DNA from: Oscillospiraceae bacterium
GTDB taxonomy: Bacteria > Bacillota > Clostridia > Oscillospirales > Oscillospiraceae
Assembly: GCA_017624915.1 (NCBI GenBank)
Contig: JAGAMC010000049.1
Span: forward strand, 85,815 to 149,814
DNA length: 64,000 bases
Direction: 5' to 3'
Made by a program: the position numbers and the translations under genes. The notes beneath the pieces are model-generated. The model searched no databases. It was given only the letters and a program-made list of their open reading frames with translations, and had not been told where the DNA came from. Positions 50,252 to 63,043 of the stretch are shown one piece after another (the first letter of the stretch is position 1; each line of letters opens with the position of its first letter).

Positions 50252-51289
50252 TCACTTTTCATCCGAGTTATCCTTGGTTTCACCGTTTTTCCCCGTTTTT
50301 TTGATCTTTCCAAGGGGATTCGCCCGGGCTGCAGCACGCAGATCTTCATTGTCAACGTGGGTATATATCTGGGTGGTATTGAGATTGTCGTGACCCAAAA
50401 CCTCCTGCAGCGTACGCACATCCACACCATTTTGAAGCATTAAGGTAGCAGCGGTGTGACGCAGCTTGTGGGAGGAGTACTGGGTGCTGTCCAGGCCTGC
50501 TGCGGACAGATGCTTTTTAACCAGTTTATGCACCGCGGCAGTGGTGATCCGCCTATGGTTCTGGCGGGTAACAAACAGGGCATTTTTGTCTATCACACCC
50601 ATGGTTTCACGCTCAGCAAGCCAGTCGTCAAGAGCCTGTCTGCAGGCATCATTGAGAAAGAGCATACGCTCTTTATTGCCCTTACCAAGCACACGCAGCT
50701 GGGCGTCACGTACATCGGTAATATTCAGCCCCACAAGCTCGGAAATGCGCAAACCGCAGTTCAAAAACAGAGTTAGCATACAGTAATCGCGGGTCTGATT
50801 TTTTCCGTCAACGCCGGAGAGCAAATTTACACTTTCTTCCAGTGTCAGATATTTGGGCAGGGACTTGCGCAGGCGGGGAGCGTCCAGATCCTGCATGGGG
50901 TTTTCGGTAATCAATTTTGCCTTGTTGGTCAGATATTTATAGAACGAGCGGATAGCAGCGACTTTTCGGGCGCGGGCCGCCGGCGAAAGGCCGTATTCGG
51001 GACTTGAACTGTTGCGGTGGGTCACACGGTCGCGGCTGAGGTAATTCATGTAGGAATAGACGTCACTGAGGGTAATGGAGCGCACCAGCTCAATATCAAC
51101 GTCATCAATGGAAATTTCATCAAAGGGAGTGCTGTAAGGAATTTTTCCTTTTTCAAGCTTGATATAGCGAAAGAAGTTGCGCAGATCCAAATAATATTCG
51201 TCCACAGTTTTGCGGGAGTGACCCTGAACCGTTTCATGGTAAGTGAGAAATTCCCGCAGGATGGGCGGCGCTTCAGTCCGAAAGTTCAT
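50252..51289 (-). CDS. Xer-like tyrosine recombinase
   Basis: 345 residues from the ATG at 51289. An N-terminal core-binding domain (LREFLTYHETVQGHSRKTVDEYYLDLRNF) precedes the catalytic domain with Arg in NCGLRISELVGLN, Lys in GKGNKERML, HKLRHTAATLM (HxxR) and LGHDNLNTTQIYTHV (His and nucleophilic Tyr), so all catalytic residues are present. It resembles XerC/XerD rather than a phage integrase, and a dif-like palindrome lies 73 bp upstream. The open frame extends to 51358, where a purine-rich GGAGGGGGG could serve a TTG at 51337; the true start is uncertain. It is probably a host gene next to which elements insert. Confidence 0.88.
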   Translation of the reverse strand: MNFRTEAPPILREFLTYHETVQGHSRKTVDEYYLDLRNFFRYIKLEKGKIPYSTPFDEISIDDVDIELVRSITLSDVYSYMNYLSRDRVTHRNSSSPEYGLSPAARARKVAAIRSFYKYLTNKAKLITENPMQDLDAPRLRKSLPKYLTLEESVNLLSGVDGKNQTRDYCMLTLFLNCGLRISELVGLNITDVRDAQLRVLGKGNKERMLFLNDACRQALDDWLAERETMGVIDKNALFVTRQNHRRITTAAVHKLVKKHLSAAGLDSTQYSSHKLRHTAATLMLQNGVDVRTLQEVLGHDNLNTTQIYTHVDNEDLRAAARANPLGKIKKTGKNGETKDNSDEK

Positions 51290-51361
51290 ATAGATCCAGA
51301 AAAGACCGTATAGGCCGGAACGGGGTTTTGGGGTCAAAATCCTGTTTCCCCCCTCCATTCA

Positions 51362-51389
51362 GGTCAACAAAATTTTTATTTTGTTGACC
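51362..51389. repeat. 28-bp dif-like site, left attachment site of element A
   Basis: A perfect inverted repeat: left arm GGTCAACAAAA (51362-51372), 6-bp spacer TTTTTA (51373-51378), right arm TTTTGTTGACC (51379-51389). The 11-6-11 layout is that of XerC/XerD dif sites. The spacer plus right arm (17 bp) recur at 62052-62068, bracketing the phage element. The intact palindrome is what excision of element A would restore. Confidence 0.8.
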
Positions 51390-51398
51390 GAATACAGT

Positions 51399-52163
51399 CT
51401 ATCCCTGTTCCTCCTCTCCATCAGATTCAGCGTTGACAGACGTCCAAAGTTTGAAGTCCTTTTTAGGCAGCTCCGGAGCATCATAACTGTCAAACAGCTT
51501 CCAAAGGCGCGGCATCCAGACCCACTGTGTATTGAGTACCGGAGTACCAAATGCATAAAGATCGCAGACTTTATGTGTCTGATCATCGATACCAATTCTC
51601 CGCCTGATCAGACGAATTACGATAAAGCCAGGGATCAAACTTTTCCGAACTAAGTAGTAATTCTGGGCTAAGCGCCGGAGCGTAATATCCATATCTTCAT
51701 AGCTCTGGCTGAACACATCGATGCTTGTTCCATAATGACGATGAAGTTTGAAAAACTTAATAGTTTCAAAGGGTAGAGACTTATAATTACGAGAATTATA
51801 ATCAATACCTGCTTCATCGATGATGATTTTAGCATCCTCTATCAAATAATAACCCAGATCATTGCGAGCGTCAAGTTTATAGGTGCCAAGGATAGGTACA
51901 TTACTGTAAACCGGCACCGGTGCCTGGGTCTTCCCTGCTGCCCAGCTCAGAGGCCGACAGCTCGGCCAGCGCTCAGACAGACGGCGCAGCAATGACTTAT
52001 GATTTGCACGCGCAGTAAGCCATGCTGCATAGGTGGTTTTACCGGATCCGGGCACACCAAAATACACGTTCACGACATGGCGATTTTTCCATTTACGGGT
52101 AAAGCTATAATTATGATAAGCGAACAACAGGACTAAGGTCAACAAAACATAGATAAAAATCAT
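51399..52163 (-). CDS. Zot/pI-type phage assembly ATPase
   Basis: 254 residues from the ATG at 52163, which follows AAGGTGAT; an in-frame GTG four codons earlier overlaps that site. An N-terminal membrane helix (IFIYVLLTLVLLFAY) precedes a P-loop domain with Walker A GVPGSGKTT (36-44) and Walker B AKIIIDEAG (111-119), then RHYGTSIDVFSQ. Zot/pI proteins drive extrusion of filamentous phage at the inner membrane. In coliphages the helix is C-terminal; here it is N-terminal, as in other Gram-positive-type relatives. It is the last gene of the late array. Confidence 0.88.
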   Translation of the reverse strand: MIFIYVLLTLVLLFAYHNYSFTRKWKNRHVVNVYFGVPGSGKTTYAAWLTARANHKSLLRRLSERWPSCRPLSWAAGKTQAPVPVYSNVPILGTYKLDARNDLGYYLIEDAKIIIDEAGIDYNSRNYKSLPFETIKFFKLHRHYGTSIDVFSQSYEDMDITLRRLAQNYYLVRKSLIPGFIVIRLIRRRIGIDDQTHKVCDLYAFGTPVLNTQWVWMPRLWKLFDSYDAPELPKKDFKLWTSVNAESDGEEEQG

Positions 52164-52189
52164 ACCGAAAATCACCTTTCTATGACAGG

Positions 52190-52215
52190 AAGAGGAGCTC
52201 CGGAGAGCTCCTCTT
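52190..52215 (-). other. Strong stem-loop between the coat genes and zot
   Basis: AAGAGGAGCTC (52190-52200), loop CGGA, GAGCTCCTCTT (52205-52215): an 11-bp perfect stem with no T-tract on either side. It follows the last coat-protein gene directly. It could protect the coat mRNA 3' end and reduce transcription into zot, as the terminator after gene VIII does in Ff phages. Confidence 0.6.
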
Positions 52216-52226
52216 CCCTACCGCGA

Positions 52227-52400
52227 TTAACCGCGAGTATGCAGCAGACGAGAGAACATGCCCACGCCCAGACCACACAGAGGAACGGCAACGCAGAACA
52301 GCAGCAGGACGGGAGTGCCGGTCACGGTGGCGCCAACCTCACTGACCCAGCCAATAGCCTGGGTAAACACGGAGCCAACAGCAGTCAGAAGTTCAGTCAT
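52227..52400 (-). CDS. pVIII-like major coat protein candidate (copy 1)
   Basis: 57 residues, below the size most gene finders report. A short polar N-terminus, then TAVGSVFTQAIGWVSEVGATVTG, then one hydrophobic span LLLFCVAVPLCGLGVGMF and a basic tail (SRLLHTRG). This polar-hydrophobic-basic order is that of filamentous-phage coat proteins. The C-terminal half is nearly identical to that of the 64-residue protein encoded just upstream, so the genes are a tandem duplication. GAAAGGATG precedes the ATG. Confidence 0.7.
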   Translation of the reverse strand: MTELLTAVGSVFTQAIGWVSEVGATVTGTPVLLLFCVAVPLCGLGVGMFSRLLHTRG

Positions 52401-52448
52401 GATAAATACATCCTTTCATTAGTTTACATTAGGTGGATAGGTACAGGA

Positions 52449-52643
52449 TCAGCCCCGGGTGCGCAGCAGGCGAGCAAACATGCCAACACCCAGGCCGCAC
52501 AGAGGAACGGCAACGCAGAACAGCAGAAGCATGGGGTTGTCAGCTTTACCCTCAGTAAAGCCGGCAATCTCAGCACCGACAGTTCCGACCCAGCCGATCG
52601 CCGCGGTGAAAACCTCACCGACAGAAGCAAGCAGCGCAGCCAT
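52449..52643 (-). CDS. pVIII-like major coat protein candidate (copy 2)
   Basis: 64 residues: ALLASVGEVFTAAIGWVGTVGAE, a short linker (GFTEGKADN), the hydrophobic span LLLFCVAVPLCGLGVGMF and basic end ARLLRTRG. Paralogue of the 57-residue protein, with a 7-residue longer middle. GGGAGGTATACCTA supplies the ribosome-binding site, and the start overlaps the stop of the previous gene. Having two coat paralogues suggests one major and one minor, or interchangeable, coat protein. Confidence 0.72.
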   Translation of the reverse strand: MAALLASVGEVFTAAIGWVGTVGAEIAGFTEGKADNPMLLLFCVAVPLCGLGVGMFARLLRTRG

Positions 52644-52783
52644 TAGGTATACCTCCCTTCAATAAGGATTTTGATAAACTTTGCTATAAAGCAAAAGCAG
52701 ATCAAGCCGAACAGATAGAAAATCGGAGGTGTCATGAGGAAGTCAGCAACGGCCTCCAACATGGCGGTGCAGAAAGTAATCAT
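52643..52783 (-). CDS. Small phage membrane protein (46 residues)
   Basis: Starts MITFCTAMLEAVADF and has one hydrophobic helix (PPIFYLFGLICFCFIAKFI) with a basic, polar end. Its stop overlaps the ATG of coat copy 2, and its own start lies one base after the stop of the 70-residue gene upstream, so it is a member of the tightly packed late array. No family recognised; a minor coat protein is plausible. Confidence 0.6.
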   Translation of the reverse strand: MITFCTAMLEAVADFLMTPPIFYLFGLICFCFIAKFIKILIEGRYT

Positions 52784-52784
52784 C

Positions 52785-52997
52785 TCATCCACGGATCAAC
52801 ACCCCCACAATACGGAAAAACGAATACAGGACAATACCGAACAGGAACACTCCGGCCACCCAGGGCCAGTCCACGCCGGCAACACCGGAAGCCACAGTTT
52901 CAACGAGCTGGACAGATCCATCTGCAGCGGAAGAAACAGGGACGGTGGTCAATACAGGAGTATAAACGCCAAAGATAGTTTCAACGAGAGTTTTCAT
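52785..52997 (-). CDS. Small phage membrane protein (70 residues)
   Basis: The first half is polar (SSAADGSVQLVETVASGV) and the second half a single hydrophobic helix (WVAGVFLFGIVLYSFFRIVGVLI) with a final Arg-Gly. Such a periplasm-outside, helix-inside layout again fits a filamentous coat-type protein. Overlaps the preceding gene (stop and start share bases). Confidence 0.65.
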   Translation of the reverse strand: MKTLVETIFGVYTPVLTTVPVSSAADGSVQLVETVASGVAGVDWPWVAGVFLFGIVLYSFFRIVGVLIRG

Positions 52998-53224
52998 TTA
53001 TCGCCTCTCCCCTTCCCTTTTCTTTTAAAATCAGATACAACAGCCAGAACAGCTCCATAGGGGCTGACACCCAGCATCATACAGACGAAGCGCAGACCGA
53101 GCGTGGCCAGAAACAGGCCAACGAACAGAGCCGCAAAGCTGAATCCCATACCGGGCACTTCCACTTCCGTAAAGAAGTCCCAGGACGCGCCCAGGAACCA
53201 TTCGATAGCTTCTATCACTTGCAT
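52994..53224 (-). CDS. Small phage membrane protein (76 residues)
   Basis: A polar N-terminus (IEAIEWFLGASWDFFTEVEVPG) is followed by a membrane span (FSFAALFVGLFLATLGLRFVCMML) and a strongly basic tail (DFKRKGKGRGDK). The basic tail could contact ssDNA, as in coat proteins. GGAGGTATCCGC precedes the ATG. Overlaps the next gene by 4 bp. No family recognised. Confidence 0.65.
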   Translation of the reverse strand: MQVIEAIEWFLGASWDFFTEVEVPGMGFSFAALFVGLFLATLGLRFVCMMLGVSPYGAVLAVVSDFKRKGKGRGDK

Positions 53225-53236
53225 GCGGATACCTCC

Positions 53237-53380
53237 TTACAAGAACGGAATGAGGTCCAGGATAAAGGCGATCAGACGCAGAGCAGCTACCAGAAAGAAC
53301 AGAGTAATGACACCGGAACAGATAATATACAACGGAAATGGGAGCCAACCAACCAGAACCTTAAAGAAAGTCTGAATCAT
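53237..53380 (-). CDS. Small phage membrane protein (47 residues)
   Basis: Two closely spaced hydrophobic stretches (VLVGWLPFPLYIICSGVITLFFLV and LRLIAFILDLIPFL). It begins 5 bp after the previous stop, behind GGGAGGTGACCTGA, in the late array between the 54- and 76-residue genes. No family recognised. Confidence 0.55.
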   Translation of the reverse strand: MIQTFFKVLVGWLPFPLYIICSGVITLFFLVAALRLIAFILDLIPFL

Positions 53381-53385
53381 TCAGG

Positions 53386-53550
53386 TCACCTCCCTAACCC
53401 ACGGACGATACAGAGAAGCGCCGTGCCACCAAAAGCCGCATAGATCAACAGGTGAATGGCCAGAGGAAGAGCCTCAAAGACCTGCTGCAGGAAAAAATAT
53501 ACCTGCATCACATCAAACATTAAGGTATCAAAGAGTGATGTTATTCCCAT
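53386..53550 (-). CDS. Small phage membrane protein (54 residues)
   Basis: Starts MGITSLFDTLMFDVMQ, followed by a hydrophobic helix (LPLAIHLLIYAAFGGTALLCIV) and a basic end (RGLGR). Its ATG lies inside the last codons of the adhesin gene, with GGAGGTGCGG as ribosome-binding site there, so translation is coupled to the adhesin. No family recognised. Confidence 0.6.
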   Translation of the reverse strand: MGITSLFDTLMFDVMQVYFFLQQVFEALPLAIHLLIYAAFGGTALLCIVRGLGR

Positions 53551-56500
53551 ATATCCGCACCTCCCATATCCAGACCGCCAAACAATTCACTACCAGGGGA
53601 ATACATATCAAAGAAGCTGGTAATATCACCCATGCTGGTGATCACGCCAAGGACACCGCCAAACGCAGTTTTAACCGTACCGGTAGTAAAGCTCCAAACG
53701 CCATCCTTCACGGCAACCAGCAGGTCGATGAAATTCCAGCTTTCATCATCCTCTGTCGCCGGATCATCCTCACCGCCCGGGAAGTTCATATCCAGATCCG
53801 GATCTATGGGAGTGCTGGGAGAGCTTCCGGGGGTATCGGAGGGGCCGGGATCATCCGGCAGGGGCGGAGAAAAGGTACTATTGATAAAAATAAGCGAAGC
53901 CTGATTTGTACGATCAGGAGTAAGAAAATCAATAACATCCCCAGGGACAATATCAAACACAGAGACTATTGAACCAGAACGAGTATCTACAACAATAGGC
54001 TGACTATCAAAGGGGAATGCCGGACCAATTGATTCATAATCAGAATCCCAACAAACAGACCAACAGGGATTACTGGAAGACGAATGCGTTTCTATGTCAG
54101 AGTGTCCTAAAGCATAATAATTGGAACTAGACCCCCAAAGATAAGCACCCTTAGTAACTAAGTCATGATAACCAAACAGACCATTATTTGTGAGATTGAT
54201 ATTACATCGCTTTGCTTCCGTTACCGCGCCATCTTCAACACTCATGGTGAAGAAGCCGCCGCCAAAGGAACCACGGTTGCCCTTGGGAGTTGACGTGGGG
54301 ATATTGACCTTTACTGCAGTACCGTCCATGCGGTAGAACACATAAGTACCGGCATAGGGGAAGTCAGTGGGAATATACAACATTTCGCCGTCTTCCGGGA
54401 CGTACTCATAAGGGGCGGTCAGCTCCGTAGGAGAAAAAGCGCTGTTGATGAAAATGATCTCCGGAACATCATCACCGCTGCCATCCACGCAGTAGTAATC
54501 AATGACCATACCGGGGACGAGATCACCGGGTGAAATAGCAGCCATCTTATGGGTATCGACGACAATGGTATTCTCACCAATGGTAAAGTCCTTAACGGCC
54601 TCATAAGAAAGCTGCCAGCAGTAAGTCCAACAGGGATTGCTGTCAGAGCTATGGGCCTTAAGGTCGATACAACTGACACTCAGCTCCTCCCTATCGACCA
54701 GGTTGATTTTGTTGTGATAGCCGAACTGGCCGGGATTGACATCCCTAATATTAAGCCGGAGAGCCTCAACAACAACATCATTCTCTACGGCAAAGGAGAA
54801 GAAACCACCGCCGAAAGAACCACGGTTGCCTTTGGGCGTTGCTGTAGGAATATCTACCCTTACAGGAGAACCATCCAGACGATAGAAGATGTGTTCACCG
54901 GCATAAGGGAAGTCTTTGGGGGTATACAGCGTTTCGCCATCTCCGGGTACGTACAGCGGGATAGTATCGTCTATCTCAGGCTCATCACCAACGATCTGAC
55001 GGAGCAGGTCGATAATGATATCGAAGCGTTCGATCATGCCGTCCCAGGCGCGCTGCAGCCACGACCAGAAGCCTGTTTCCGTATAGATGGGGTCCATGGA
55101 AGGATCATTGCCGACAACGTCCCACAGGTCCTTCATGAGCAGGATATCAAAGGCGTAGTATGGGACCCAGCGAGAACCGGTCCAGATACGACCGTCACAT
55201 TCTTCCCAGGCCTGTCCGTTATAGATCTGCAGAGAGGTGATGCGGCCACTCTCGACCAGACCCCAGACAAGGCCTGTCTTAGGCAGAGAGGGACGCACGC
55301 CGCCCAGCTGATAGCCGGTGATCTCATGGGCAGTACGGACAGCCAACGTGGGCTTGGTGATCGTGGACATGTCCAGAGCGGCTACGCTCTCCACGTACTC
55401 ATGACCGGAATTGGCGATACTGCCCGCCACCAGCTCCACATAGACGAGCTGCACAGAGGTATTAACGGTACGGATAGACGCAACCAAAGGATACTGATAA
55501 TCAGAAAGAATTGGGAACGGCTGCTCTTCATACTCCCAATCAGAATAACCGGACATAAGGACCTCAATGAAAACACCGGGAATAATCTCCAAAGATGCAG
55601 AAACATCGTCAAAATAATACTCAGGAGCAACAAAAGTCACAGAATGAACATTACCATCCGATAGCATGACGCTAAGTGTATATTCAAATCCCGGTTCAAG
55701 ATCATACACACCATCAGAGACATAGAAATAATCCTCTGCAGATGTACTCCCGAGCCATGCCAAAGGCAAGTACAATTCTGTATTGGCAAGGATAGTAACA
55801 TTATCGGAATTAATCTGAACACCCTGTCCGTTTTCATCAATGAACCAAGAGCCAGGATAATTCAAATACGCATCAGAAAAGTTTATACCACGCTTGTACA
55901 TCGAAGTATCTTCCGGAAGCGGCACCTCAACCATGACACTTTCATCCACGGCGTAAGAGCCGGACCAATCGTAATTAGTCAGCAGGTTGTCATCTGCATT
56001 AAACTGCCAGTAGGAGTCTGCTACAGGGCGCTGGGTGTCCGGCAGAACAAGGGCGAGGTTGGTATCATGGGGAACGCTGGTAGGCGTATAGCGCATTGTA
56101 TCATAGAGAGCGCTCTTTACAAAGCGGAGCTCATCAAAGTACTTATATGTCTGCTGATCTGAGCCGAAGTAGAACCGAACATAAGCACTAAACCAACTGG
56201 AATTAGATTCCGAATACACCTTAACGCCGTTGATGTAGTAATACAGTGTGCCGCTCTTGCGCATAATACAGATCTCCTGCCAGTTACCAACGGAGGTCGA
56301 TGCTATGACCTGCCCGGAGGCGGTCATGAAGCTGGCACCGTTCATACGCAGGATGGGCTGAGTACCCAGCTGAACAAAACTATCCGTTACAGGGGTCTCT
56401 GTATGGCTCTGGTAGTACCGGAACTGCAGGGTAAAGTCCTCCTGGCCCAGGCCGCGACCGGGGAACGTGATCGTGAAGTCGTGTTCCGTCTCATCCAGAT

Positions 56501-58079
56501 ACAGAGCGCCGTTAAATGCGTTAGCATCCATGTAGGTAATGCTCGCTCCGGCTTCCCAGATGAATTGCGTTTCATGGGACCAATAAGAGCTGTCAAAGGT
56601 ATTGCCATCGAAGTGGTACAGCGCTCTGAGCGAGGTATCATCTGCAGACCGGACATAAGGAACCATATCCAGGCTGACGTTCAAAACTTCCAGATCCTCA
56701 GCCGTCAGATCTGCAGAGGATCTACCGTCCGGCAGCTCATAGTAGAACTCATAGGTTTTGTTATATTCCTCCGTGGCACCAATATAAGTGACAGAAGTAT
56801 AATCAATATGATAACTTATCTCATAAAACTGCAAATTATAAGTATCATTATCGTTATACGTGCGATATTCCGTATGATATGTTTTCGTACCGGTATCATA
56901 AATCAGATTCTCAATAAACTGCAGATCGCCTTCCGGAGAATAAACAGTACTCGTCGAGTTATCAATTATCTGCTGCTCAATCGTATCACCGTTGTTATAG
57001 ACATTGTCACCATTATGATTAGTGTAATAATCATTCGGAGTATTAACGGCATACTCCCCAGCATTAATAGGTGCTACATACGGATAACCATCATCATCAC
57101 AGTAAATATAATAACGGCCTTCCTGAGTAATCACCCACTGTTTTTCTTCCTGTCCGGGCACAGTCCATTGATGCATAGAAACATGATGATTTTCGGAAAT
57201 TTGACCAAGTTGAAAAGCGATATCGGCAAGCATATCATCCGTGAGCATATTTACTCGCGTCCCATCCGGTATCTCCTCCCAAGGAACCCACTTGCCACCA
57301 AGGCTCCTATCAGTAACGATCACATCCAAAACGCCAGAAGAGCTACCAGCGTCCAAAGCAGCGACATAAGGCCGCTTATCCGGAGTACAATAGAATTTAG
57401 AATCCGAGGTGCGTACTACAGCCATCCACTCAAGGCCATATGCGTCAGTCCACACTTTAGTCTCTACCCCATCATTATTGGCAGACAAACGATAAACAAG
57501 ATTAGAAAGGGTATCATAACTCAATTCACAAACACCATAGCCGCCAAAAGAAGAACGACTTAACCACTGACCACTTTCTGAAAAATTGGAGGCGGAACCG
57601 GTGCCAGTTTCTTCAGGTTGATAAAAACAAATAGCACCACCACTCGTACACAATATAGCGCCAGTATAATCATCTACAAGGCAGTAAAGACCAAGATTGG
57701 AAACAAAGACGACTTTAGCCATTGGAGTAGGAAGAAGAAAAGCATCACCAATAAGCTCATTTAACTTCTCCCACACATTATTACTTTTCAAATAATTATT
57801 AAGCCGCGCACAAGTACGCTCAAGCACAGAGAGAGAGGAACAAGCACCAACAGCACCAGCTTTATAAAGAACTTCATCGGTGCCATGCCACCAGTATGTA
57901 CGAAAAACATCACCAACAACAGGAATATCATCTGTGTACGTGCCTATAACAGAATCCCAAACACCAACAAGGTCTGGATCAATGTACTGAGTATCAAAAG
58001 AAGTGCTCGGCCCAAAAGCCACTACACCAGGGAGAGGAAACAAAGACAATACCAAAACAACAGCTAAAATCCGTTTCAC
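53541..58079 (-). CDS. Giant secreted adhesin-like protein of the phage (pIII-like position)
   Basis: 1,512 residues. The start is GTG at 58079 behind TGGAGGTTG; an upstream ATG at 58166 would add residues before a clear signal peptide (KRILAVVLVLSLFPLPGVVA). A LamG/concanavalin A-like domain is at about 483-655 (ALYHFDGNTFD, FTLQFRYYQ, YYYINGVKVYSES, YKYFDELRFVKSALYD). Two tandem copies of a module of about 175 residues are at about 1045-1220 and 1230-1405 (shared FPYAG, FYR-DG, TPKGNRGSFGGGFF, HSS-SNPCW, VVDT). A Pro/Asp-rich linker near 1413 leads to a hydrophobic C-terminus. It is several times larger than typical pIII (about 400). It probably forms the host-recognition tip, anchored by its end. 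Confidence 0.75.
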   Translation of the reverse strand: MKRILAVVLVLSLFPLPGVVAFGPSTSFDTQYIDPDLVGVWDSVIGTYTDDIPVVGDVFRTYWWHGTDEVLYKAGAVGACSSLSVLERTCARLNNYLKSNNVWEKLNELIGDAFLLPTPMAKVVFVSNLGLYCLVDDYTGAILCTSGGAICFYQPEETGTGSASNFSESGQWLSRSSFGGYGVCELSYDTLSNLVYRLSANNDGVETKVWTDAYGLEWMAVVRTSDSKFYCTPDKRPYVAALDAGSSSGVLDVIVTDRSLGGKWVPWEEIPDGTRVNMLTDDMLADIAFQLGQISENHHVSMHQWTVPGQEEKQWVITQEGRYYIYCDDDGYPYVAPINAGEYAVNTPNDYYTNHNGDNVYNNGDTIEQQIIDNSTSTVYSPEGDLQFIENLIYDTGTKTYHTEYRTYNDNDTYNLQFYEISYHIDYTSVTYIGATEEYNKTYEFYYELPDGRSSADLTAEDLEVLNVSLDMVPYVRSADDTSLRALYHFDGNTFDSSYWSHETQFIWEAGASITYMDANAFNGALYLDETEHDFTITFPGRGLGQEDFTLQFRYYQSHTETPVTDSFVQLGTQPILRMNGASFMTASGQVIASTSVGNWQEICIMRKSGTLYYYINGVKVYSESNSSWFSAYVRFYFGSDQQTYKYFDELRFVKSALYDTMRYTPTSVPHDTNLALVLPDTQRPVADSYWQFNADDNLLTNYDWSGSYAVDESVMVEVPLPEDTSMYKRGINFSDAYLNYPGSWFIDENGQGVQINSDNVTILANTELYLPLAWLGSTSAEDYFYVSDGVYDLEPGFEYTLSVMLSDGNVHSVTFVAPEYYFDDVSASLEIIPGVFIEVLMSGYSDWEYEEQPFPILSDYQYPLVASIRTVNTSVQLVYVELVAGSIANSGHEYVESVAALDMSTITKPTLAVRTAHEITGYQLGGVRPSLPKTGLVWGLVESGRITSLQIYNGQAWEECDGRIWTGSRWVPYYAFDILLMKDLWDVVGNDPSMDPIYTETGFWSWLQRAWDGMIERFDIIIDLLRQIVGDEPEIDDTIPLYVPGDGETLYTPKDFPYAGEHIFYRLDGSPVRVDIPTATPKGNRGSFGGGFFSFAVENDVVVEALRLNIRDVNPGQFGYHNKINLVDREELSVSCIDLKAHSSDSNPCWTYCWQLSYEAVKDFTIGENTIVVDTHKMAAISPGDLVPGMVIDYYCVDGSGDDVPEIIFINSAFSPTELTAPYEYVPEDGEMLYIPTDFPYAGTYVFYRMDGTAVKVNIPTSTPKGNRGSFGGGFFTMSVEDGAVTEAKRCNINLTNNGLFGYHDLVTKGAYLWGSSSNYYALGHSDIETHSSSSNPCWSVCWDSDYESIGPAFPFDSQPIVVDTRSGSIVSVFDIVPGDVIDFLTPDRTNQASLIFINSTFSPPLPDDPGPSDTPGSSPSTPIDPDLDMNFPGGEDDPATEDDESWNFIDLLVAVKDGVWSFTTGTVKTAFGGVLGVITSMGDITSFFDMYSPGSELFGGLDMGGADIWE
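53865..54400 (-). repeat. Adhesin module, second copy
   Basis: Encodes the second copy of the duplicated module, from LYIPTDFPYAG to INSTFSP. Nearly identical TPKGNRGSFGGGFF and a CWxxCW pair are shared with the first copy; the stretches between differ. Confidence 0.8.
54430..54950 (-). repeat. Adhesin module, first copy
   Basis: Encodes LYTPKDFPYAG to INSAFSP, the first copy of the module. Similarity to the second copy is high in the first 50 residues and near the CWTYCW motif. Confidence 0.8.
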
Positions 58080-58109
58080 TTGACAACCTCCAGAAATAAG
58101 AGATAAAAT
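58080..58109 (+). promoter_or_regulatory. Strong + strand promoter of a phage minigene
   Basis: TTGACA at 58080-58085 and TAAAAT at 58104-58109, spacer 18 bp. It faces away from the surrounding minus-strand genes, and overlaps the ribosome-binding site of the adhesin gene on the other strand. Confidence 0.65.
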
Positions 58110-58129
58110 ACACAAGAGGTGATTAAATA

Positions 58130-58261
58130 ATGGGTTCAAACGCATACATCGTACTACTAATCGCAATATTAACAGTATTTATCGCACCCATCGTATTAAC
58201 TACAATCTTACTTATCAGACACATCCAAAAAAGAAGAAAGCAAGATCAGAACAAGCCGTGA
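58130..58261 (+). CDS. Opposite-strand small membrane protein (43 residues)
   Basis: Begins MGSNAYIVLLIAIL, one hydrophobic helix (YIVLLIAILTVFIAPIVLTTILLI) and a basic tail (RHIQKRRKQDQNKP). It has a complete unit: promoter at 58080-58109, AAGAGGTGAT ribosome-binding site, and a terminator that starts at its stop codon. It fills a 186-bp gap between minus-strand genes. It could be a host-lysis or superinfection factor, a type I toxin-like peptide or a coat protein; the transcript is also antisense to any readthrough into the adhesin leader. Confidence 0.65.
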   Translation: MGSNAYIVLLIAILTVFIAPIVLTTILLIRHIQKRRKQDQNKP

Positions 58262-58280
58262 GTAATCACGGCTTTTTCTT
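58253..58280 (+). terminator. Terminator of the 43-residue minigene
   Basis: AAGCCGTGA (58253-58261), loop GTAA, TCACGGCTT (58266-58274), then TTTCTT. Confidence 0.8.
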
Positions 58281-58406
58281 ACACCTGCGGAGCTCGCGCA
58301 GGGCTGAGATCAGACCGTCATAAATAGACGCGCCGCACCGGAGCAGAAAGCCGGCTCCCAGCAGCCAGCCGACCATATACCAATTATCAAAGAGCTCATA
58401 CATCAT
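58266..58406 (-). CDS. Small phage membrane protein (46 residues)
   Basis: Starts MMYELFDNWYMVG with a hydrophobic stretch (YMVGWLLGAGFLLRCGASIY) and a basic end (ALRELRRCKKKP). Its start overlaps the stop of the 64-residue gene, so the two are coupled. Its 3' end runs into the terminator hairpin shared with the opposite-strand minigene. No family recognised. Confidence 0.55.
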   Translation of the reverse strand: MMYELFDNWYMVGWLLGAGFLLRCGASIYDGLISALRELRRCKKKP

Positions 58407-58597
58407 TTCGCCTTTTTCTTGCGCCAAAACATATAGACCGTATCAGCAATCTGAAACGTAACATAAACAACAAGACCAAAGGCAACACAATGCAAGACCA
58501 AATACACAGCCCCGAACTGCACCGCCCAGGCAAACAATGTATCCGGCTCAACACCGATCCGCTCCGCAATCACCACGAGCTGGTTAACGAAATCCAT
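58403..58597 (-). CDS. Small phage membrane protein (64 residues)
   Basis: A polar N-terminal helix (DFVNQLVVIAERIGVEPDTLFAW), a long hydrophobic helix (VQFGAVYLVLHCVAFGLVVYVTFQIADTV) and a basic tail (WRKKKAK). AGGGGTGATCTC upstream is a usable ribosome-binding site, partly inside the end of the preceding frame. The layout again suggests a structural membrane protein. Confidence 0.6.
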   Translation of the reverse strand: MDFVNQLVVIAERIGVEPDTLFAWAVQFGAVYLVLHCVAFGLVVYVTFQIADTVYMFWRKKKAK

Positions 58598-58607
58598 AGA
58601 AAAGAGA

Positions 58608-58784
58608 TCACCCCTTTATCTTTTTAAAGAAGGACACAATATGTTTCCAAAGAAAATCAAGAAGTCTATCACCAAGATCCAGAAACAGCCGATAATAGTC
58701 AAAACCAACAGCCAAACCGAAACCAACAATGATAATAGAAACGTAACCACAGGAAGCAAATAATTTATCAAAATAAGCAAGCAA
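58608..58784 (-). CDS. Possible small phage membrane protein (58 residues, TTG start)
   Basis: Reads LAYFDKLFASCGYVSIIIVG onward, with a hydrophobic helix and an amphipathic basic end (LLDFLWKHIVSFFKKIKG). No ATG is available; a TTG at 58784 lies 6 bases after GAGGTGA. A competing plus-strand frame exists at 58641-58763, but its highly charged product looks less like a protein. Medium-low confidence. Confidence 0.45.
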   Translation of the reverse strand: MLAYFDKLFASCGYVSIIIVGFGLAVGFDYYRLFLDLGDRLLDFLWKHIVSFFKKIKG

Positions 58785-58797
58785 AGGAGATCACCTC

Positions 58798-58959
58798 ATG
58801 AAAGAAATCTTTAAAAGTACATACCAAGTTGCAGTATGGCTTTACACTCAGGTCAAACCCGCATGCGAAGCTGTAATGGAACTTGAAATATTCCGCATAT
58901 TTGCGGTAGCAGCAAGCGTTGCGACAATATGCAAGTGGCTCTCGAAAAAGCGGTGGTAA
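58798..58959 (+). CDS. Opposite-strand small protein (53 residues)
   Basis: Starts MKEIFKSTYQVAVWLYTQVK and ends with a hydrophobic helix (FRIFAVAASVATICKWL) and a basic SKKRW. AAAGGAG lies 8-9 bases upstream of the ATG, and an intrinsic terminator covers its stop. It fills a gap in the minus-strand array. No clear promoter was found. The sequence GGAGATCACCTC before it is almost palindromic and may serve as a ribosome-binding site on both strands. Confidence 0.55.
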   Translation: MKEIFKSTYQVAVWLYTQVKPACEAVMELEIFRIFAVAASVATICKWLSKKRW

Positions 58960-58977
58960 TCACTGCTTTTTCTTTTT
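58947..58977 (+). terminator. Terminator of the 53-residue minigene
   Basis: AAAGCGGTG (58947-58955), loop GTAAT, CACTGCTTT (58961-58969) with one G-T pair, then TTCTTTTT. Confidence 0.7.
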
Positions 58978-59079
58978 GTCCATGATGTACCAGCCTGCCA
59001 GAGCGCCCAGGAGCGCCGGAGCTGAGATCAGGAAGAACGCCGAGCCGGCGATCACAGCGCAGATCAGACACAGCTCCAT
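58960..59079 (-). CDS. Small phage membrane protein (39 residues)
   Basis: Starts MELCLICAVIAGSAFFLIS and continues through one helix to a basic end (DKKKKQ). The ATG lies 1 base after the stop of the 41-residue gene upstream. It ends at the terminator hairpin shared with the plus-strand minigene. No family recognised. Confidence 0.55.
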   Translation of the reverse strand: MELCLICAVIAGSAFFLISAPALLGALAGWYIMDKKKKQ

Positions 59080-59080
59080 A

Positions 59081-59206
59081 TCAGCCGAATACCAGATACA
59101 TGGCCGCTTTGACCTTACGAAGCAGGAAGCGGCGCAGGCCTGCAGGCATAAAGGCGGCGATTACCGTAATCACACCGGCGATCAGACCGAGGATGCGATA
59201 TTTCAT
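59081..59206 (-). CDS. Small phage membrane protein (41 residues)
   Basis: Starts MKYRILGLIAGVITVIAAF, one helix, followed by a basic segment (GLRRFLLRKVKAAMYLVFG). GGGAGAGGTAG precedes the ATG, which overlaps the stop of the rep gene (TAATG), indicating coupling. Unknown function. Confidence 0.6.
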   Translation of the reverse strand: MKYRILGLIAGVITVIAAFMPAGLRRFLLRKVKAAMYLVFG

Positions 59207-60117
59207 TAACTACCTCTCCCCTCTTGTAAATCACTTAAATCCGAGAACAGCGATAGCTGCTCTCCCAATATCTCAACATAGGCATCTGCGCCGGAGCTGA
59301 CATCGATAGAGACTTCATCCGGCAGCTCGCCGCCGCAGTCTTCCCATTCGTCAACTTCGCAGTAATCCATCCAGAAACGCCAGTCCACGTCACGGACGAA
59401 ACCTACTGAGCAAAACTGGAACTTCTCTTCCAGCAGATCATCCAAAACTGAATAATGACCATAGATGTCACCGCAGGGCACAGCCCGGCGCAGGCCTATG
59501 CTTGCATAGTACAGATGAGCACCATAACCGGTAACACCACGATCAAAGGCTTTTGTCACGTATTTGGTGATATAGAACGCACATGCTTCCGCATCACGTA
59601 TTTCACCGAAACTGCAAAAGCCGAATTTTTTTGCATATCGACCCCAGTTCAGATAATGGCCATCGACCAGACGGTCTGGGTGCAGACCACGGACGAATGG
59701 GGTCAAATGGCTCTGGGGAATACCGCGCATGAAGCCGTGCATATGCCAGGCACCGTCTTCATGCTGTTCCGGAATAAGGCAGTATTCGATCTTACAGCCG
59801 TATTCCTTGCGGTAATCACGAATCCATTGAGCGAACGCTTTATAGTAAGTATTCAGCTCATAACGGTTAAATTGGGTCTTATCAATGGTAAAGGTACAAA
59901 AAAAGTCCCAGTCGTTGCATAGTGCCAGCTGGAGCACTACAGAACGAGCGCGGGACAACGCTTGCGATAACTTACCCTCTCCCCTATCGGTATCATCCGG
60001 CTGTCTTTCATAGATTCGAGGCGACAGCGGCCGATGGAACTTCACCAGACGGTACAGGCCTTCACGGTAATACTTGACCATATAGTCCGGGTTCAGGGTG
60101 GCGGTATCTATGTACAT
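59206..60117 (-). CDS. HUH-family rolling-circle replication initiator
   Basis: 303 residues. Motif 1 is FFCTFTIDK (72-80), motif 2 HMHGF with the HUH His pair at 125 and 127 (preceded by CLIPEQHEDGAW), motif 3 YITKYVTK with Tyr182 and Tyr186. Such enzymes nick one strand at the origin and stay linked through Tyr, as pII does in filamentous phages. An acidic C-terminal region follows (EVDEWEDCGGELPDEV). The intergenic region upstream (60118-60371) is the candidate origin. A related Rep is encoded by element B. Confidence 0.88.
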   Translation of the reverse strand: MYIDTATLNPDYMVKYYREGLYRLVKFHRPLSPRIYERQPDDTDRGEGKLSQALSRARSVVLQLALCNDWDFFCTFTIDKTQFNRYELNTYYKAFAQWIRDYRKEYGCKIEYCLIPEQHEDGAWHMHGFMRGIPQSHLTPFVRGLHPDRLVDGHYLNWGRYAKKFGFCSFGEIRDAEACAFYITKYVTKAFDRGVTGYGAHLYYASIGLRRAVPCGDIYGHYSVLDDLLEEKFQFCSVGFVRDVDWRFWMDYCEVDEWEDCGGELPDEVSIDVSSGADAYVEILGEQLSLFSDLSDLQEGRGS

Positions 60118-60124
60118 CTTTGCA

Positions 60125-60360
60125 TCATCTCCCGACTTACGTTACGTAGTCAAGTCCCCGAAGACCGACCTGCAGCCGGTCAAAAACAGGGACTATGCCA
60201 GACAATGCTCATCATCCCGACGATCATCCGTCCTGCACAAAGTTGTGCATTTCGAGCGCAAAGGGCAGTCTGAGCGCCGCCTTGGGCGGCCTGCTGCGCT
60301 CGATTGCGCCTGTAATTCATAGCGCTCCGCCTTGCGTGAGACGGCGTATCGCTATAAATT
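60125..60360. other. Candidate phage replication origin (noncoding, hairpin-rich)
   Basis: About 250 bp without a convincing gene between rep and the 100-residue gene. It contains GAGCGC (60272-60277) paired with GCGCTC (60296-60301) around an inner CCGCC/GGCGG stem, and a second hairpin with outer ATAGCG (60319-60324) and CGCTAT (60350-60355) arms. Filamentous-phage origins are intergenic hairpin clusters beside the initiator gene; the nick site itself was not identified. Confidence 0.5.
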
Positions 60361-60371
60361 CTTAGGCGCTC

Positions 60372-60674
60372 CTATTTATCCGATTCTTCAGGTACCTGCA
60401 TCAGACGGCGAGGAAGCTTTATCCCTTTTGTCTTGCAGTAGTCCACGATCTGCATGTTGATCAGGACTTCACACCGGTACCGATATTCAACCAGGCGAAA
60501 GTTATCACGCAGCCGGTCATGCTCTTCCTCCAGCTGGGTAAGCTGCTGGCGGAGGCTCTGGACCATGTTACTGTCTGTGAGGATCACTTCCACCTGTAAA
60601 GGGGAACCGCCCCCAACCAAAGAAAGGAGATTACTCTGATTGAGGGCGGACGGAGAGACGTTTTTACTTGACAT
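60372..60674 (-). CDS. Coiled-coil phage protein (100 residues)
   Basis: Starts at the ATG at 60674, giving MSSKNVSPSALNQSN. A likely coiled coil spans about 37-70 (MVQSLRQQLTQLEEEHDRLRDNFRLVE), followed by a basic end (TKGIKLPRRLMQ). It overlaps the upstream 82-residue gene by 11 bp. No family recognised; an accessory replication or regulatory protein is possible. Confidence 0.65.
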   Translation of the reverse strand: MSSKNVSPSALNQSNLLSLVGGGSPLQVEVILTDSNMVQSLRQQLTQLEEEHDRLRDNFRLVEYRYRCEVLINMQIVDYCKTKGIKLPRRLMQVPEESDK

Positions 60675-60912
60675 GCTGCTCGATGTTATCGACCTTACCG
60701 TACCGGTTGTAGAAGACACGGATGGTATCGTGCAGCTTGGGGACATAGCTCAGCAGAGAAGCGCGATTGGCGCCGACGAACAGCTTTTCACAGGCTACGC
60801 CCTGGACGTTATCATCAGGGTATTCCACGAAATAGGAAGTGCCATTGATGGTCTGGCCGGACTGGCCATCGGTGAAAGAAACAGGACGAATACCAACTAC
60901 TTTACAGATCAT
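60664..60912 (-). CDS. Candidate ssDNA-binding protein of the phage (82 residues)
   Basis: Starts MICKVVGIRPVSFTDGQSGQ and continues with beta-rich alternation (GTSYFVEYPDDNVQGVACEKLFV, DTIRVFYNRYGKVDNIE). Size, predicted beta content and position among early genes match small OB-like ssDNA-binding proteins such as gene V protein, but no motif proves it. CTGGAGGTAA precedes the ATG. The 26-bp leader repeat lies directly upstream. Confidence 0.55.
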   Translation of the reverse strand: MICKVVGIRPVSFTDGQSGQTINGTSYFVEYPDDNVQGVACEKLFVGANRASLLSYVPKLHDTIRVFYNRYGKVDNIEQHVK

Positions 60913-60916
60913 TACA

Positions 60917-60942
60917 TTTACCTCCAGTATTTTTGATTGGGT
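60917..60942 (-). repeat. 26-bp leader repeat, copy 1
   Basis: Identical to 61245-61270. On the minus strand it reads ACCCAATCAAAAATACTGG then AGGTAAA, covering the ribosome-binding site of the 82-residue gene. Confidence 0.85.
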
Positions 60943-60985
60943 TGAACAAACAGGAACAAAGATCAGTCAGCGGCTATTTCATAAA

Positions 60986-61231
60986 TCAACTCGATGTGAC
61001 TATTTCATAAATCCACTCGATCAGGTCGTTAGCCTCATCTTCCAACATTAAGCCGGCAGAATACCGACACTCGACATAGGCCAAAGCCATACCGCAAGAA
61101 ATACGAAATGACGCGCAAGACATGCTGCCACAGACATACGCTTTCTCAACTTCACGGATGAAGTCAGTAATGTCATCTTCCAGAGGCTTCTCAAGGTAAT
61201 AGAACGAATCAGGCTTTTTCATAACAGACAT
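60986..61231 (-). CDS. Phage early protein, paralogue pair member 2 (81 residues)
   Basis: Starts at the ATG at 61231 (MSVMKKPDSFYYLEKPLED). It shares AYVECRYSAGL and the pattern D-I-x-x-F-I-x-x-V-E-x-A with the 81-residue protein encoded just upstream (AYTECRYSAGL), so the genes arose by duplication. All-helical prediction, no known family. AAAGGAGGTA precedes the ATG. The end of the gene contains a short tandem duplication (60974-60995 and 61000-61021). Confidence 0.7.
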   Translation of the reverse strand: MSVMKKPDSFYYLEKPLEDDITDFIREVEKAYVCGSMSCASFRISCGMALAYVECRYSAGLMLEDEANDLIEWIYEIVTSS

Positions 61232-61244
61232 AAGTAATACCTCC

Positions 61245-61270
61245 TTTACCTCCAGTATTTTTGATTGGGT
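61245..61270 (-). repeat. 26-bp leader repeat, copy 2
   Basis: Identical to 60917-60942, again directly upstream of an early gene (81-residue member 2), with a second ribosome-binding site (GGAGGTATT) added after it. Confidence 0.85.
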
Positions 61271-61275
61271 GAAGC

Positions 61276-61521
61276 TTAAAAAGTAGAAGTTAACGAAGTA
61301 CAGGCCAAGGCCAAAACATACTTTGCATCTTCCGTAGAAATCAGACCGGCAGAATACCGGCATTCGGTATAGGCAATGGCCTTACCAACAGCGAGGGTGT
61401 AATCACGCGAGCGCATACTTCCGGACAAACACGCGAGCTCAACACAGGAAATAAACTGCTCAATGTCTTTTACACCATTTTGGAGAGGATCTTCGAGACG
61501 GGGAATTTTAGACAAATCCAT
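61276..61521 (-). CDS. Phage early protein, paralogue pair member 1 (81 residues)
   Basis: Starts MDLSKIPRLEDPLQNGVKD; helical, with AIAYTECRYSAGLISTEDAKY in the C-terminal half. It is the first gene after the early promoter at 61658-61686. AGGAAGGAGGG precedes the ATG. Function unknown; the pair might be regulators or replication helpers. Confidence 0.7.
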   Translation of the reverse strand: MDLSKIPRLEDPLQNGVKDIEQFISCVELACLSGSMRSRDYTLAVGKAIAYTECRYSAGLISTEDAKYVLALACTSLTSTF

Positions 61522-61633
61522 TTTCTACCCTCCTTCCTATTTAGTTGGCCCTCCCCTACTGGCTCCGACCTCTCGGACGGAACCAGGGGGTCAAAGGGGA
61601 GGAGTGCAGCACATACCTCCCAGTACGAGCCGC

Positions 61634-61705
61634 TTAGCTGAGATATCAGCTAATCAAAAGATAGCTTACATCTCAGCTAAAGTCAATAGCTGAAATGCAA
61701 GCTAT
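61634..61705. promoter_or_regulatory. Three-operator array and early promoter of element A
   Basis: Three 20-bp inverted repeats with 8-bp arms and 4-bp centres: O1 61634-61653 (TTAGCTGA, TCAGCTAA, perfect), O2 61661-61680 (ATAGCTTA, TCAGCTAA), O3 61686-61705 (ATAGCTGA, CAAGCTAT). Their centres lie 27 and 25 bp apart. The minus-strand promoter is TTGACT (61686-61681), 17 bp, TATCTT (61663-61658), with O2 filling the spacer and the -10 edge. A rightward TATGAT at 61703-61708 overlaps O3 and may serve the repressor gene. Confidence 0.8.
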
Positions 61706-61747
61706 GATAAAATCAGCAAAAGTACCAAAAAAGGGGTTGAGTCAATT

Positions 61748-61966
61748 ATGGAATATTACAACAGATTGCGAGACCTACGGGAAGATAACAATAAAAACCA
61801 AAAAGAAATTGCAAATATCATAGGAACAAGCCAAAGCTACTACAGCGAATACGAATTAGGAAAAAGACAACTTCCTATAGCACACCTAAAAACACTATGC
61901 CTATACTACCAGGTATCAGCAGATTACATTTTGGGTCTCCCCAAAGGACTGAAATGGCCACGATAA
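61748..61966 (+). CDS. XRE-family phage repressor
   Basis: 72 residues. A single helix-turn-helix domain (LREDNNKNQKEIANIIGTSQSYYSEYELGKRQLPIAHLKTLCLYYQVSADYILGL) of the Cro/CI type. It is divergent from the early genes and next to the three-operator array, so it most likely represses the early promoter and controls itself. A terminator follows. Confidence 0.9.
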   Translation: MEYYNRLRDLREDNNKNQKEIANIIGTSQSYYSEYELGKRQLPIAHLKTLCLYYQVSADYILGLPKGLKWPR

Positions 61967-61972
61967 AAACAG

Positions 61973-62014
61973 AACACCCAGAGCCGGCATGCTGCTCGGC
62001 TCTGGGTGTTTTTT
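61973..62014 (+). terminator. Intrinsic terminator after the repressor gene
   Basis: AACACCCAGAGCCG (61973-61986) pairs with CGGCTCTGGGTGTT (61997-62010), followed by TTTT. Confidence 0.92.
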
Positions 62015-62040
62015 ACTCCTCCTGGGAGGCAGAAAAACAG

Positions 62041-62068
62041 GGAAAGTTTTCTTTTTATTTTGTTGACC
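62041..62068. repeat. Right attachment site of element A (dif-like, degenerate left arm)
   Basis: Spacer TTTTTA (62052-62057) and right arm TTTTGTTGACC (62058-62068) are identical to the left site, but the left arm (GGAAAGTTTTC, 62041-62051) is not. A site with only one good arm is typical of phage attP ends that use XerC/XerD. Confidence 0.75.
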
Positions 62069-62086
62069 TGTTTACTTACACACAAT

Positions 62087-62111
62087 GCCACCCCCTCCGG
62101 GGTGGCTTTTT
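62087..62111 (+). terminator. Intrinsic terminator between the two elements
   Basis: GCCACCCC (62087-62094), loop CTCC, GGGGTGGC (62099-62106), then TTTTT. It sits in the 55 bp between the second and third Xer-type sites. Confidence 0.85.
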
Positions 62112-62123
62112 GTTAGGAAGTCA

Positions 62124-62152
62124 TGTCAACAAAATAGCGGTTGTTGTTGACC
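62124..62152. repeat. Third Xer-type site, left end of element B
   Basis: TGTCAACAAAA (62124-62134), 7-bp spacer TAGCGGT, TGTTGTTGACC (62142-62152). Each arm differs by one base from the perfect arms at 51362-51389; the spacer is different and one base longer. It lies 82 bp from the end of the element B integrase gene. Confidence 0.65.
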
Positions 62153-62233
62153 CGGAGTGCAGTCTTTTCGCGCACCTCCTTTCGGCTCGTTTCAACGGAT
62201 TCAGCATACCACGCACCCACGCGGTATGTCAAC

Positions 62234-62958: not shown

Positions 62959-62983
62959 AAAAATAACCCCCTGTCAACACTTC

Positions 62984-63043
62984 CCCTTGCATAGCAAGGG
63001 TTTGCGGGCCCGTTTGACAATCCAAAAAATGTCAAATGGGCCC
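62984..63043. other. Two adjacent stem-loops between rep and the 75-residue gene
   Basis: CCCTTGC (62984-62990) pairs with GCAAGGG (62994-63000). GGGCCC and TTTGACA (63006-63019) pair with TGTCAAA and GGGCCC (63030-63043), with one G/T mismatch between the blocks, the last part overlapping the rep stop. They may end rep transcription, or form part of an origin or packaging signal. Confidence 0.5.

What the first reader, a model, noticed from the sequence alone, without database searches (positions are those of the whole stretch)
51362..62068. Inovirus-like prophage integrated at a perfect dif-type palindrome beside a xer gene
Seen: a 28-bp perfect palindrome with 11-6-11 layout at 51362-51389, and its spacer plus right arm (17 bp) repeated at 62052-62068; between them 10.7 kb of phage genes (Zot, coat-like peptides, HUH Rep, repressor). 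Known: filamentous phages such as CTXphi integrate at dif using the host XerC/XerD. Inference: element A uses the adjacent Xer recombinase. Filamentous phages in spore-forming Clostridia are poorly described, and one parked beside the xer gene itself would be unusual.
Basis: partly seen in the sequence, partly recalled or inferred. Interest (0 to 1): 0.92.

Follow-up and report, generated by a model that had tools for sequence, protein, structure and literature searches.

The report
Filamentous prophage array at chromosome terminus
A filamentous-phage genome sits, in tandem with a second small mobile element, in the site where this gut Clostridium finishes separating its chromosomes, and relatives show that this site, lying beside a recombinase gene, is a recurrent landing place for such elements.

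Summary
The 28-bp palindrome is at 51362-51389, its 17-bp half repeat at 62052-62068; between them lies a 10.7-kb inovirus-like element A (Zot/pI ATPase, HUH Rep, repressor, small membrane peptides). The palindrome behaves as this clade's dif: it lies upstream of xer in 57 of 57 close-relative loci with symmetric arm changes, and near the replication terminus. So dif beside xer is the rule here, not an oddity. Element genes occupy it in at least 8 of those 57 loci, in two kinds: Zot-type (A-like), and smaller elements with a Rep and a 166-aa tyrosine recombinase (XerB type). The window holds both; element B's far end I place on another contig after radA. Six other Zot-type genomes lack XerB, so the host Xer is the likely integrase for A. 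A's attachment site resembles TLCphi/GGI (one arm plus spacer, other arm degenerate). B's resembles CTXphi (two inverted dif-like sites that pair in single strands, one with a 10-bp spacer). Of seven related free circles from rat cecum, four carry paired dif-like sites, three with an extended spacer. Recombination itself is inferred, not shown.

The parts
50252..51358 (-). host Xer tyrosine recombinase; homologues begin near residue 24, so the true start is probably near 51289
   Evidence: PF00589 E 8e-39; below the NCBIfam cut-offs for XerC, XerD, XerS and XerA; homologue at E 1e-83 or better in 36 of 40 genomes searched, own included
51362..51389 (.). dif: perfect 11-6-11 palindrome, xer-proximal end of element A
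   Evidence: conserved upstream of xer in 57 of 57 close-relative loci
51390..62068 (-). element A, inovirus-like prophage, 10,679 bp
51399..52175 (-). Zot/pI-like assembly ATPase, N-terminal TM-like segment
   Evidence: PF05707 E 5e-7, phrog_197, hydropathy; matches Inoviridae records
52137..52147 (-). inverted exact copy of the dif arm inside zot
   Evidence: 0 of 150 shuffles
52227..53550 (-). seven small ORFs with TM-like segments, candidate coat/minor virion proteins
   Evidence: hydropathy; six of the seven scanned in PHROGs and/or Pfam without a hit over cut-off; 53237-53380 not scanned
53541..58166 (-). 1541-aa protein with a concanavalin-like stretch, candidate adsorption/tip protein
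   Evidence: PF13385 E 1.4e-4, 22.5 bits, below cut-off 27.6
59206..60117 (-). HUH rolling-circle Rep
   Evidence: PF23343 E 4e-10; phrog_3419
60372..60746 (-). o124, shared by Zot-type and some XerB-type elements
   Evidence: tblastn
60664..60912 (-). o82, conserved small protein; an ssDNA-binding role is a guess
   Evidence: tblastn; no family over cut-off
61748..61966 (+). HTH repressor next to the distal attachment site
   Evidence: PF12844; same place in other elements
62041..62068 (.). distal attachment site of A: on the xer strand intact arm + TAAAAA + degenerate arm
62069..64000 (-). proximal part of element B, which runs off the contig
62124..62152 (.). attP2-like imperfect dif of B (11-7-11)
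   Evidence: pairs with B's distal site in the ssDNA fold
62203..62232 (-). promoter-like TTGACA-18-TATGCT facing xer
   Evidence: read by eye; consensus only
62234..62734 (-). XerB, 166-aa catalytic-domain tyrosine recombinase of B
   Evidence: PF00589 E 3e-22; R35, K57, K60, H118, R121, H144, Y153 invariant in 9 aligned sequences (calling these catalytic is recalled)
63032..63850 (-). RepB, HUH Rep of B
   Evidence: PF23343 E 3.5e-13

Best explanation
The palindrome is the chromosome's dif, recognised by the Xer encoded next to it, probably one recombinase binding both arms. Element A is a filamentous-phage (inovirus-like) prophage that entered this dif as a circle by Xer-type recombination: its attP carries one matching arm and the identical 6-bp spacer, with the other arm degenerate. 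Integration leaves a perfect dif on the xer side and a damaged one on the far side, so chromosome separation can continue. B, a Rep plus XerB element, occupied the same site, and A lies between B and xer. B's attP is a pair of inverted dif-like sites that can pair in single-stranded DNA. Shown: sites, gene content, conservation, terminus position, recurrence, one exact tandem array in a relative, free circles of XerB relatives. Inferred: that Xer catalyses the reaction, that A makes virions, that B enters as ssDNA, the order of insertion, and that contigs C16 and C47 adjoin.
For: Site upstream of xer in 57 of 57 close-relative loci, arms perfectly complementary in 53 of 57, four symmetric arm types. 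dif opposite dnaA in 7 of 7 single-contig genomes at about 46-55% of the circle (site checked beside xer in 4: G007, G011, G012, G343). GC skew in G011 changes sign between 1.800 and 1.812 Mb, dif at 1.808 Mb. Element genes at dif in 8 of 57 loci. Distal sites in L053, L114, L115, L116, L119, L120, L122 repeat window A's arrangement, a dif-type arm + TAAAAA + diverged arm (the last three lie on contigs or stretches without xer). Two copies of a 3,417-bp XerB element in tandem at dif in L135, 0 mismatches. In G166 two contigs share 5,561 bp of one element without mismatch, and one ends where the xer junction and the element's own junction diverge. Inovirus relatives. XerB in 0 of 6 other Zot-type genomes searched. 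B's far end beyond radA and its fold.
Against: No exact copy of arm plus spacer in the 7 fetched related phage genomes; the nearest is one mismatch inside rep of L261, others two mismatches. A XerD over cut-off exists in G011, and a second Xer-like gene of about 300 aa, about a third identical, appears in many relatives (capped list), so a two-recombinase reaction is not excluded. C16 and C47 share no end sequence, so their join is inferred. A's own attP does not fold. Coat proteins are unidentified. G166's shared 5.5 kb could be an assembly duplicate. Nothing was tested for activity.
Confidence: 0.85

Rival explanations
1. Element A was integrated by XerB from the neighbouring element B, not by the host Xer.
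For: XerB is a Xer-family catalytic domain, and all 9 XerB genes found in 300 genomes (8 genomes at E 1e-30) end within about 280 bp of a dif-like site (one of these sites, in L137, is imperfect and not beside xer).
Against: XerB is absent (E 1e-20) from the 6 other genomes with Zot-type elements at dif that I searched.
Confidence: 0.06
2. The palindrome is mainly an operator or terminator in the xer leader, and elements use it only by coincidence.
For: Strict-consensus promoter-like sequence lies upstream of it in 13 of the 49 loci without element genes; a dif arm overlaps a TTGACC -35 in L039, L051, L059 and L068. No shuffle control was run for the promoter match.
Against: Conserved asymmetric 6-bp spacer, terminus position, GC-skew switch, elements ending exactly in it.
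Confidence: 0.07
3. A and B are one composite island, or A is a dead remnant that can no longer leave.
For: A's far site has a degenerate arm; no free copy of A was found; A and B are adjacent.
Against: A has its own distal site and repressor, and each kind occurs alone at dif in other genomes; the main A genes are open frames.
Confidence: 0.2

Closest known systems
TLCphi and gonococcal genomic island (IMEX with one degenerate dif arm)
   Same: One arm and the central region match dif, the other arm is degenerate (TLCphi: PMC4246890 passages; GGI: PMC5357621 passages); for GGI and LME-1 an intact dif stays at the other end (PMC9765430 discussion).
   Different: TLCphi and GGI hosts use XerC and XerD; here Clostridia with a palindromic dif next to one xer. 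TLCphi lacks morphogenesis genes, A has Zot.
CTXphi attP(+)
   Same: Two inversely oriented dif-like sites, attP1 with an extended central region (12 bp) and attP2 with 5-7 bp, 90 bp apart, pairing in ssDNA (PMC4246890 passages). Here the gap is about 30-117 bp.
   Different: Elements B carry XerB and no Zot. Extended spacers are 8-10 bp in five integrated elements and 9, 10 and 12 bp in three circles; in circle L293 the two spacers are only 6 and 7 bp. No ssDNA entry shown.
Legionella XerL/dif with LME-1
   Same: Long uninterrupted inverted-repeat arms, single recombinase, dif mimic on a mobile element, modified dif on one side (PMC9765430 abstract and discussion).
   Different: In Legionella dif and xerL are over 400 kb apart; here dif is in front of xer. 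Element contents were not compared.
XerS/difSL and XerH/difH
   Same: dif near a single xer gene (PMC9765430 discussion; start of PMC2731167 abstract).
   Different: The window Xer is below the XerS cut-off, and the site is a 28-bp perfect palindrome, not 31 bp.
Enterocloster inoviruses
   Same: Inovirus prophages of gut Clostridia flanked by direct repeats (PMC10061712 passages).
   Different: Xer does not occur in that main text and the passages shown do not name dif sites (12 of 17 places shown).

Membership tests
Inoviridae-like filamentous phage (element A) | Zot/pI assembly ATPase | tested here: met
   PF05707 over cut-off
Inoviridae-like filamentous phage (element A) | rolling-circle HUH Rep | tested here: met
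   PF23343 over cut-off
Inoviridae-like filamentous phage (element A) | size about 4-12 kb (range from a PMC10061712 passage) | tested here: met
   10,679 bp
Inoviridae-like filamentous phage (element A) | sequence kinship with classified Inoviridae | tested here: met
   Zot matches 55 phage records and Rep 27, all under 60% identity, about 38% or less in the 20 listed for each; of 7 fetched, 6 are classified Inoviridae
Inoviridae-like filamentous phage (element A) | major coat protein | tested here: inconclusive
   small TM-like ORFs, no family over cut-off
Inoviridae-like filamentous phage (element A) | secreted filamentous virions | not testable with these tools
   needs culture
IMEX | integrated at dif, leaving an intact dif and a modified one | tested here: met
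IMEX | no own integrase (element A) | tested here: met
   no recombinase hit among the A ORFs scanned (a few small ORFs were not scanned); one 64-aa ORF has an HTH_Tnp_1 match under cut-off, E 0.05. B does carry XerB
IMEX | dependence on host Xer | not testable with these tools
   needs mutants or in vitro assay
XerC/XerD | window Xer over the NCBIfam equivalog cut-off | tested here: not met
   226.8 versus 335.15 and 212.1 versus 329.6 bits
XerS/difSL | XerS equivalog cut-off | tested here: not met
   155.5 versus 267 bits
XerS/difSL | site next to the xer gene | tested here: met
   57 of 57 loci
CTXphi-type attP (element B) | two inverted dif-like sites, extended spacer in one, intrastrand pairing | tested here: met
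   winB z -9.8; also L135, L136, L139, L140. Not met in the B-type ends L115, L118, L121
CTXphi-type attP (element B) | integration of ssDNA | not testable with these tools
   experiment needed

The most novel reading that the evidence does not exclude
In Clostridia with a single, xer-linked, perfectly palindromic dif, small circular Rep-XerB plasmids have a CTXphi-like folded attP and enter dif as single-stranded DNA, sharing the site with inoviruses in tandem arrays. Where dif lies between a promoter and xer, each insertion would also change what drives the host's dimer-resolution gene.
Probability: 0.42. Interest if true: 0.8.

Novelty: new variant of a known kind. Interest (0 to 1): 0.62.

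Why it matters
It extends Xer-exploiting phages and the folded-attP architecture from Vibrio to gut Clostridia with a different, apparently single-recombinase dif. It offers a cultured relative (Flavonifractor plautii ATCC 29863 carries a B-type element) in which integration without XerCD asymmetry could be tested. It also links some anonymous small gut plasmids to a likely chromosomal home.

Tried and rejected
IMG/VR scans with Rep, Zot and the XerB alignment found no confirmed relative. In the family sample 85 of 400 genomes carry the 17-mer; the pattern covers only part of the arm types seen later (ACGCAAC, ATTGAAC, ATTAAAC), so this is a lower bound.

I considered a CTX-like hairpin for A: an inverted arm (at most one mismatch) lies within 760 bp of the proximal site in 6 of 7 Zot-type elements (not L067), each with 0 of 150 shuffles as good. 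But it lies 758 bp away in A, A's junction does not fold, and of 30 element-free loci examined L039, L047 and L068 have it exactly and L033 with one mismatch, at promoter-like sequence. So it may be an operator; left open. Fold z-scores alone are not specific: 8 of 8 empty dif controls score -2.4 to -7.3 through their own palindrome; what differs is the pairing partner.

A helper-satellite link between A and B is not supported beyond this genome: Zot in 4 of 18 genomes searched, in 0 of the 10 that carry XerB-type elements without A; that HMM scored only 22.7-27 bits where it hit. The second dif-like site is missing in 3 of 11 XerB-type ends examined, the window's included (L115, L118, L121), and 3 of 7 circles lack paired sites (L290, L294, L296). 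In one search four further loci (L038, L046, L054, L075) gave one HTH or XerB HMM hit at 1e-8 to 1e-11; I took these for unrelated repressors and integrases and did not count them. A TcdA/TcdB pore hit to a 57-aa membrane peptide (E 0.038, under cut-off) is taken as chance. No tRNA and no Rfam family over threshold in the window. Rows dropped: L070 (cut at contig end), L076 and L077 (39-45% identical, no such site) and L082 (Planctomycetia fragment) from the 61 loci before the count of 57; G017 (7 contigs) from the terminus count; for G155, G175 and G236 I did not check that the site lies beside xer.
Full report
Observation. Element A spans 51390-62068, 10,679 bp, 47.6% G+C; the 7 kb of neighbouring host DNA sampled is 50-55%. 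The window ends at a contig end, G000:C47:149814.

The site is dif. In 57 of 57 loci that encode a close relative of the window Xer and are not cut, an 11-6-11 site lies just upstream of xer. Arms are perfect inverted repeats in 53 of 57, in four symmetric types (27 GGTCAACAAAA, 12 AGTAAACAAAA, 11 ACTCAACAAAA, 3 AGTCAACAAAA); the spacer is TAAAAA in 52. By record titles these are Flavonifractor, Pseudoflavonifractor, Lawsonibacter, Intestinimonas and unnamed Oscillospiraceae, Clostridiales and Firmicutes. In single-contig genomes the site lies about 46-55% of the circle from dnaA, 7 of 7 (positions; dnaA; sizes of three genomes are rounded, and for three I did not check that xer is beside the site). 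In G011 the sampled GC skew is positive up to 1.80 Mb in 10 of 11 stretches and negative from 1.812 Mb in 9 of 9; dif is at 1.808 Mb. The window Xer is under the NCBIfam cut-offs for XerC, XerD, XerS and XerA. G011 also has a XerD over cut-off, about 20 kb away. So 'single recombinase' rests on arm symmetry and is an inference.

Element A. Zot, HUH Rep, HTH repressor, a 1541-aa protein with a weak lectin-like match and small membrane peptides. Closest phage records are gut Inoviridae (bajarodino, Dulem and porcine inoviruses) and one unclassified human-faecal scaffold, all under 60% identity. No recombinase was found among the A ORFs scanned.

Recurrence. Scanning the flank upstream of dif with four home-made HMMs, 8 of 57 loci carry element genes at dif: Zot-type L051, L053, L055, L059, L067; XerB-type L040, L042, L048. 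L051 has Zot and a repressor but no Rep and may be a remnant. Some of the other 49 have short flanks (down to 136 bp), so 8 is a lower bound. Further elements came from the 400-genome pattern search and from the XerB search of 300 genomes, 8 of which have it. Elements with both ends: window A 10,679 bp, L053 5,511, L114 6,319, L116 7,058, L115 3,953, L135 3,417 (two copies in tandem, 0 mismatches), L136 2,710, L139 2,939, L140 2,568. Where the xer side is fully held, dif is intact there; the far side is altered. L137 ends at an imperfect dif-like site with no xer in the 12 kb held.

Two attachment architectures. Window A, L053, L114 and L116, and the B-type L115, L119 and L120 (the last two assigned to B type from another contig of the same genome), have one arm plus TAAAAA and then unrelated sequence; this matches the description of TLCphi and GGI sites. 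L135, L136, L139, L140 and window B have both arms with an 8-10 bp spacer at the far end, and a second dif-like site with a 6-7 bp spacer 41-110 bp inside the near end. Joined in silico, these junctions fold so that the arm of one site pairs with the other site: winB z -9.8, L139 -10.1, L140 -10.6, L135 -6.4, L136 -4.6. This is the layout described for CTXphi attP1/attP2. Empty dif controls also fold, through their own palindrome (8 of 8, z -2.4 to -7.3), so the pairing partner, not z, is the evidence. Of the A-type junctions, window A, L053 and L114 do not fold so; in L116 the arm pairs with an inverted copy about 70 bp inside (z -2.2).

Element B and the array. radA, which precedes dif in L022 and L024 (naming it RadA is recalled from its sequence), is in G000 at C16:163701-165056. 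About 210 bp behind it, C16 reads GGTCAACAAAA-TATTTGCGGG-TTTTGTTGACC, preceded by a leader that by eye resembles that of element-free L027 and L031. C16 ends about 370 bp further on; it shares no end sequence with C47. I infer the order radA - B - A - dif - xer.

Free circles. tblastn with XerB found seven small circular plasmids, 39-67% identical, at the head of 598 plasmid records (fetched 88-94). Their accessions lie in the range that PMC3913684, a rat-cecum survey, gives for its circular contigs (passage); its passages report PCR support for 38 of 40 circles tested, which need not include these seven. Four of seven carry exactly two ACAAAA-N5-12-TTTTGT sites, 0 of 300 shuffles each. Spacers are 6 and 12 bp (L291), 6 and 10 (L292), 6 and 9 (L295), 6 and 7 (L293), so three of the four have an extended spacer. 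None of the seven matched the window's Rep or RepB.

Who integrates A? XerB is absent from 6 of 6 other genomes with Zot-type elements searched, which leaves the chromosomal Xer, or Xer plus XerD.

Possible consequence. In 13 of the 49 loci without element genes a TTGACN-16 to 18-TANRNT promoter-like sequence lies within 320 bp upstream of dif (no shuffle control), so insertion would part xer from it. Five of the eight element loci carry such a sequence near their xer end (L042, L048, L051, L053, L059), as does window B (62203-62232). This is sequence matching only.

Literature. Papers were seen as passages, abstracts, one discussion section (PMC9765430) or listings as cited. The searches (PubMed Central open licences only, capped lists) listed no paper whose title or abstract start reports dif-integrated elements in Oscillospiraceae. 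That is all I can say on priority.

Noticed in passing
L022-L081, within 65 bp upstream and 16 bp downstream of dif: A GGAGG- or GGGGG-type purine box lies downstream of dif in 56 of 57 loci and (AGGGG included) upstream in 50 of 57, same strand on both sides; no shuffle control; role unknown.
   Followed up: partly
L039, L051, L059, L068: A dif arm (TTTTGTTGACC) overlaps the -35 of a promoter-like sequence upstream of xer, which would let Xer control its own gene.
   Followed up: partly
window 62234-62734 and relatives: XerB is a 166-aa tyrosine recombinase made of the catalytic domain alone, well conserved between elements (61-77% identity to the window's).
   Followed up: partly
L262 (MT839862.1) 3865-4473: A human-faecal phage scaffold with a Zot 38% identical to A's also encodes a Xer-like stretch 35% identical to the host Xer.
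   Followed up: no
L137 2214: A XerB element ends at a dif-like site with one imperfect arm and no xer found within the 12 kb held.
   Followed up: no
window 54246-54405 and 54795-54954: A 160-bp direct repeat at 76% identity inside the 1541-aa gene, suggesting a duplicated domain.
   Followed up: no
G024 contigs C4, C13, C14: This genome has one full-length and one truncated xer (the latter at a contig end) and, on a contig without xer in the part read, a distal-type attachment site with an HTH 75% identical to A's; perhaps two strains in one bin.
   Followed up: no
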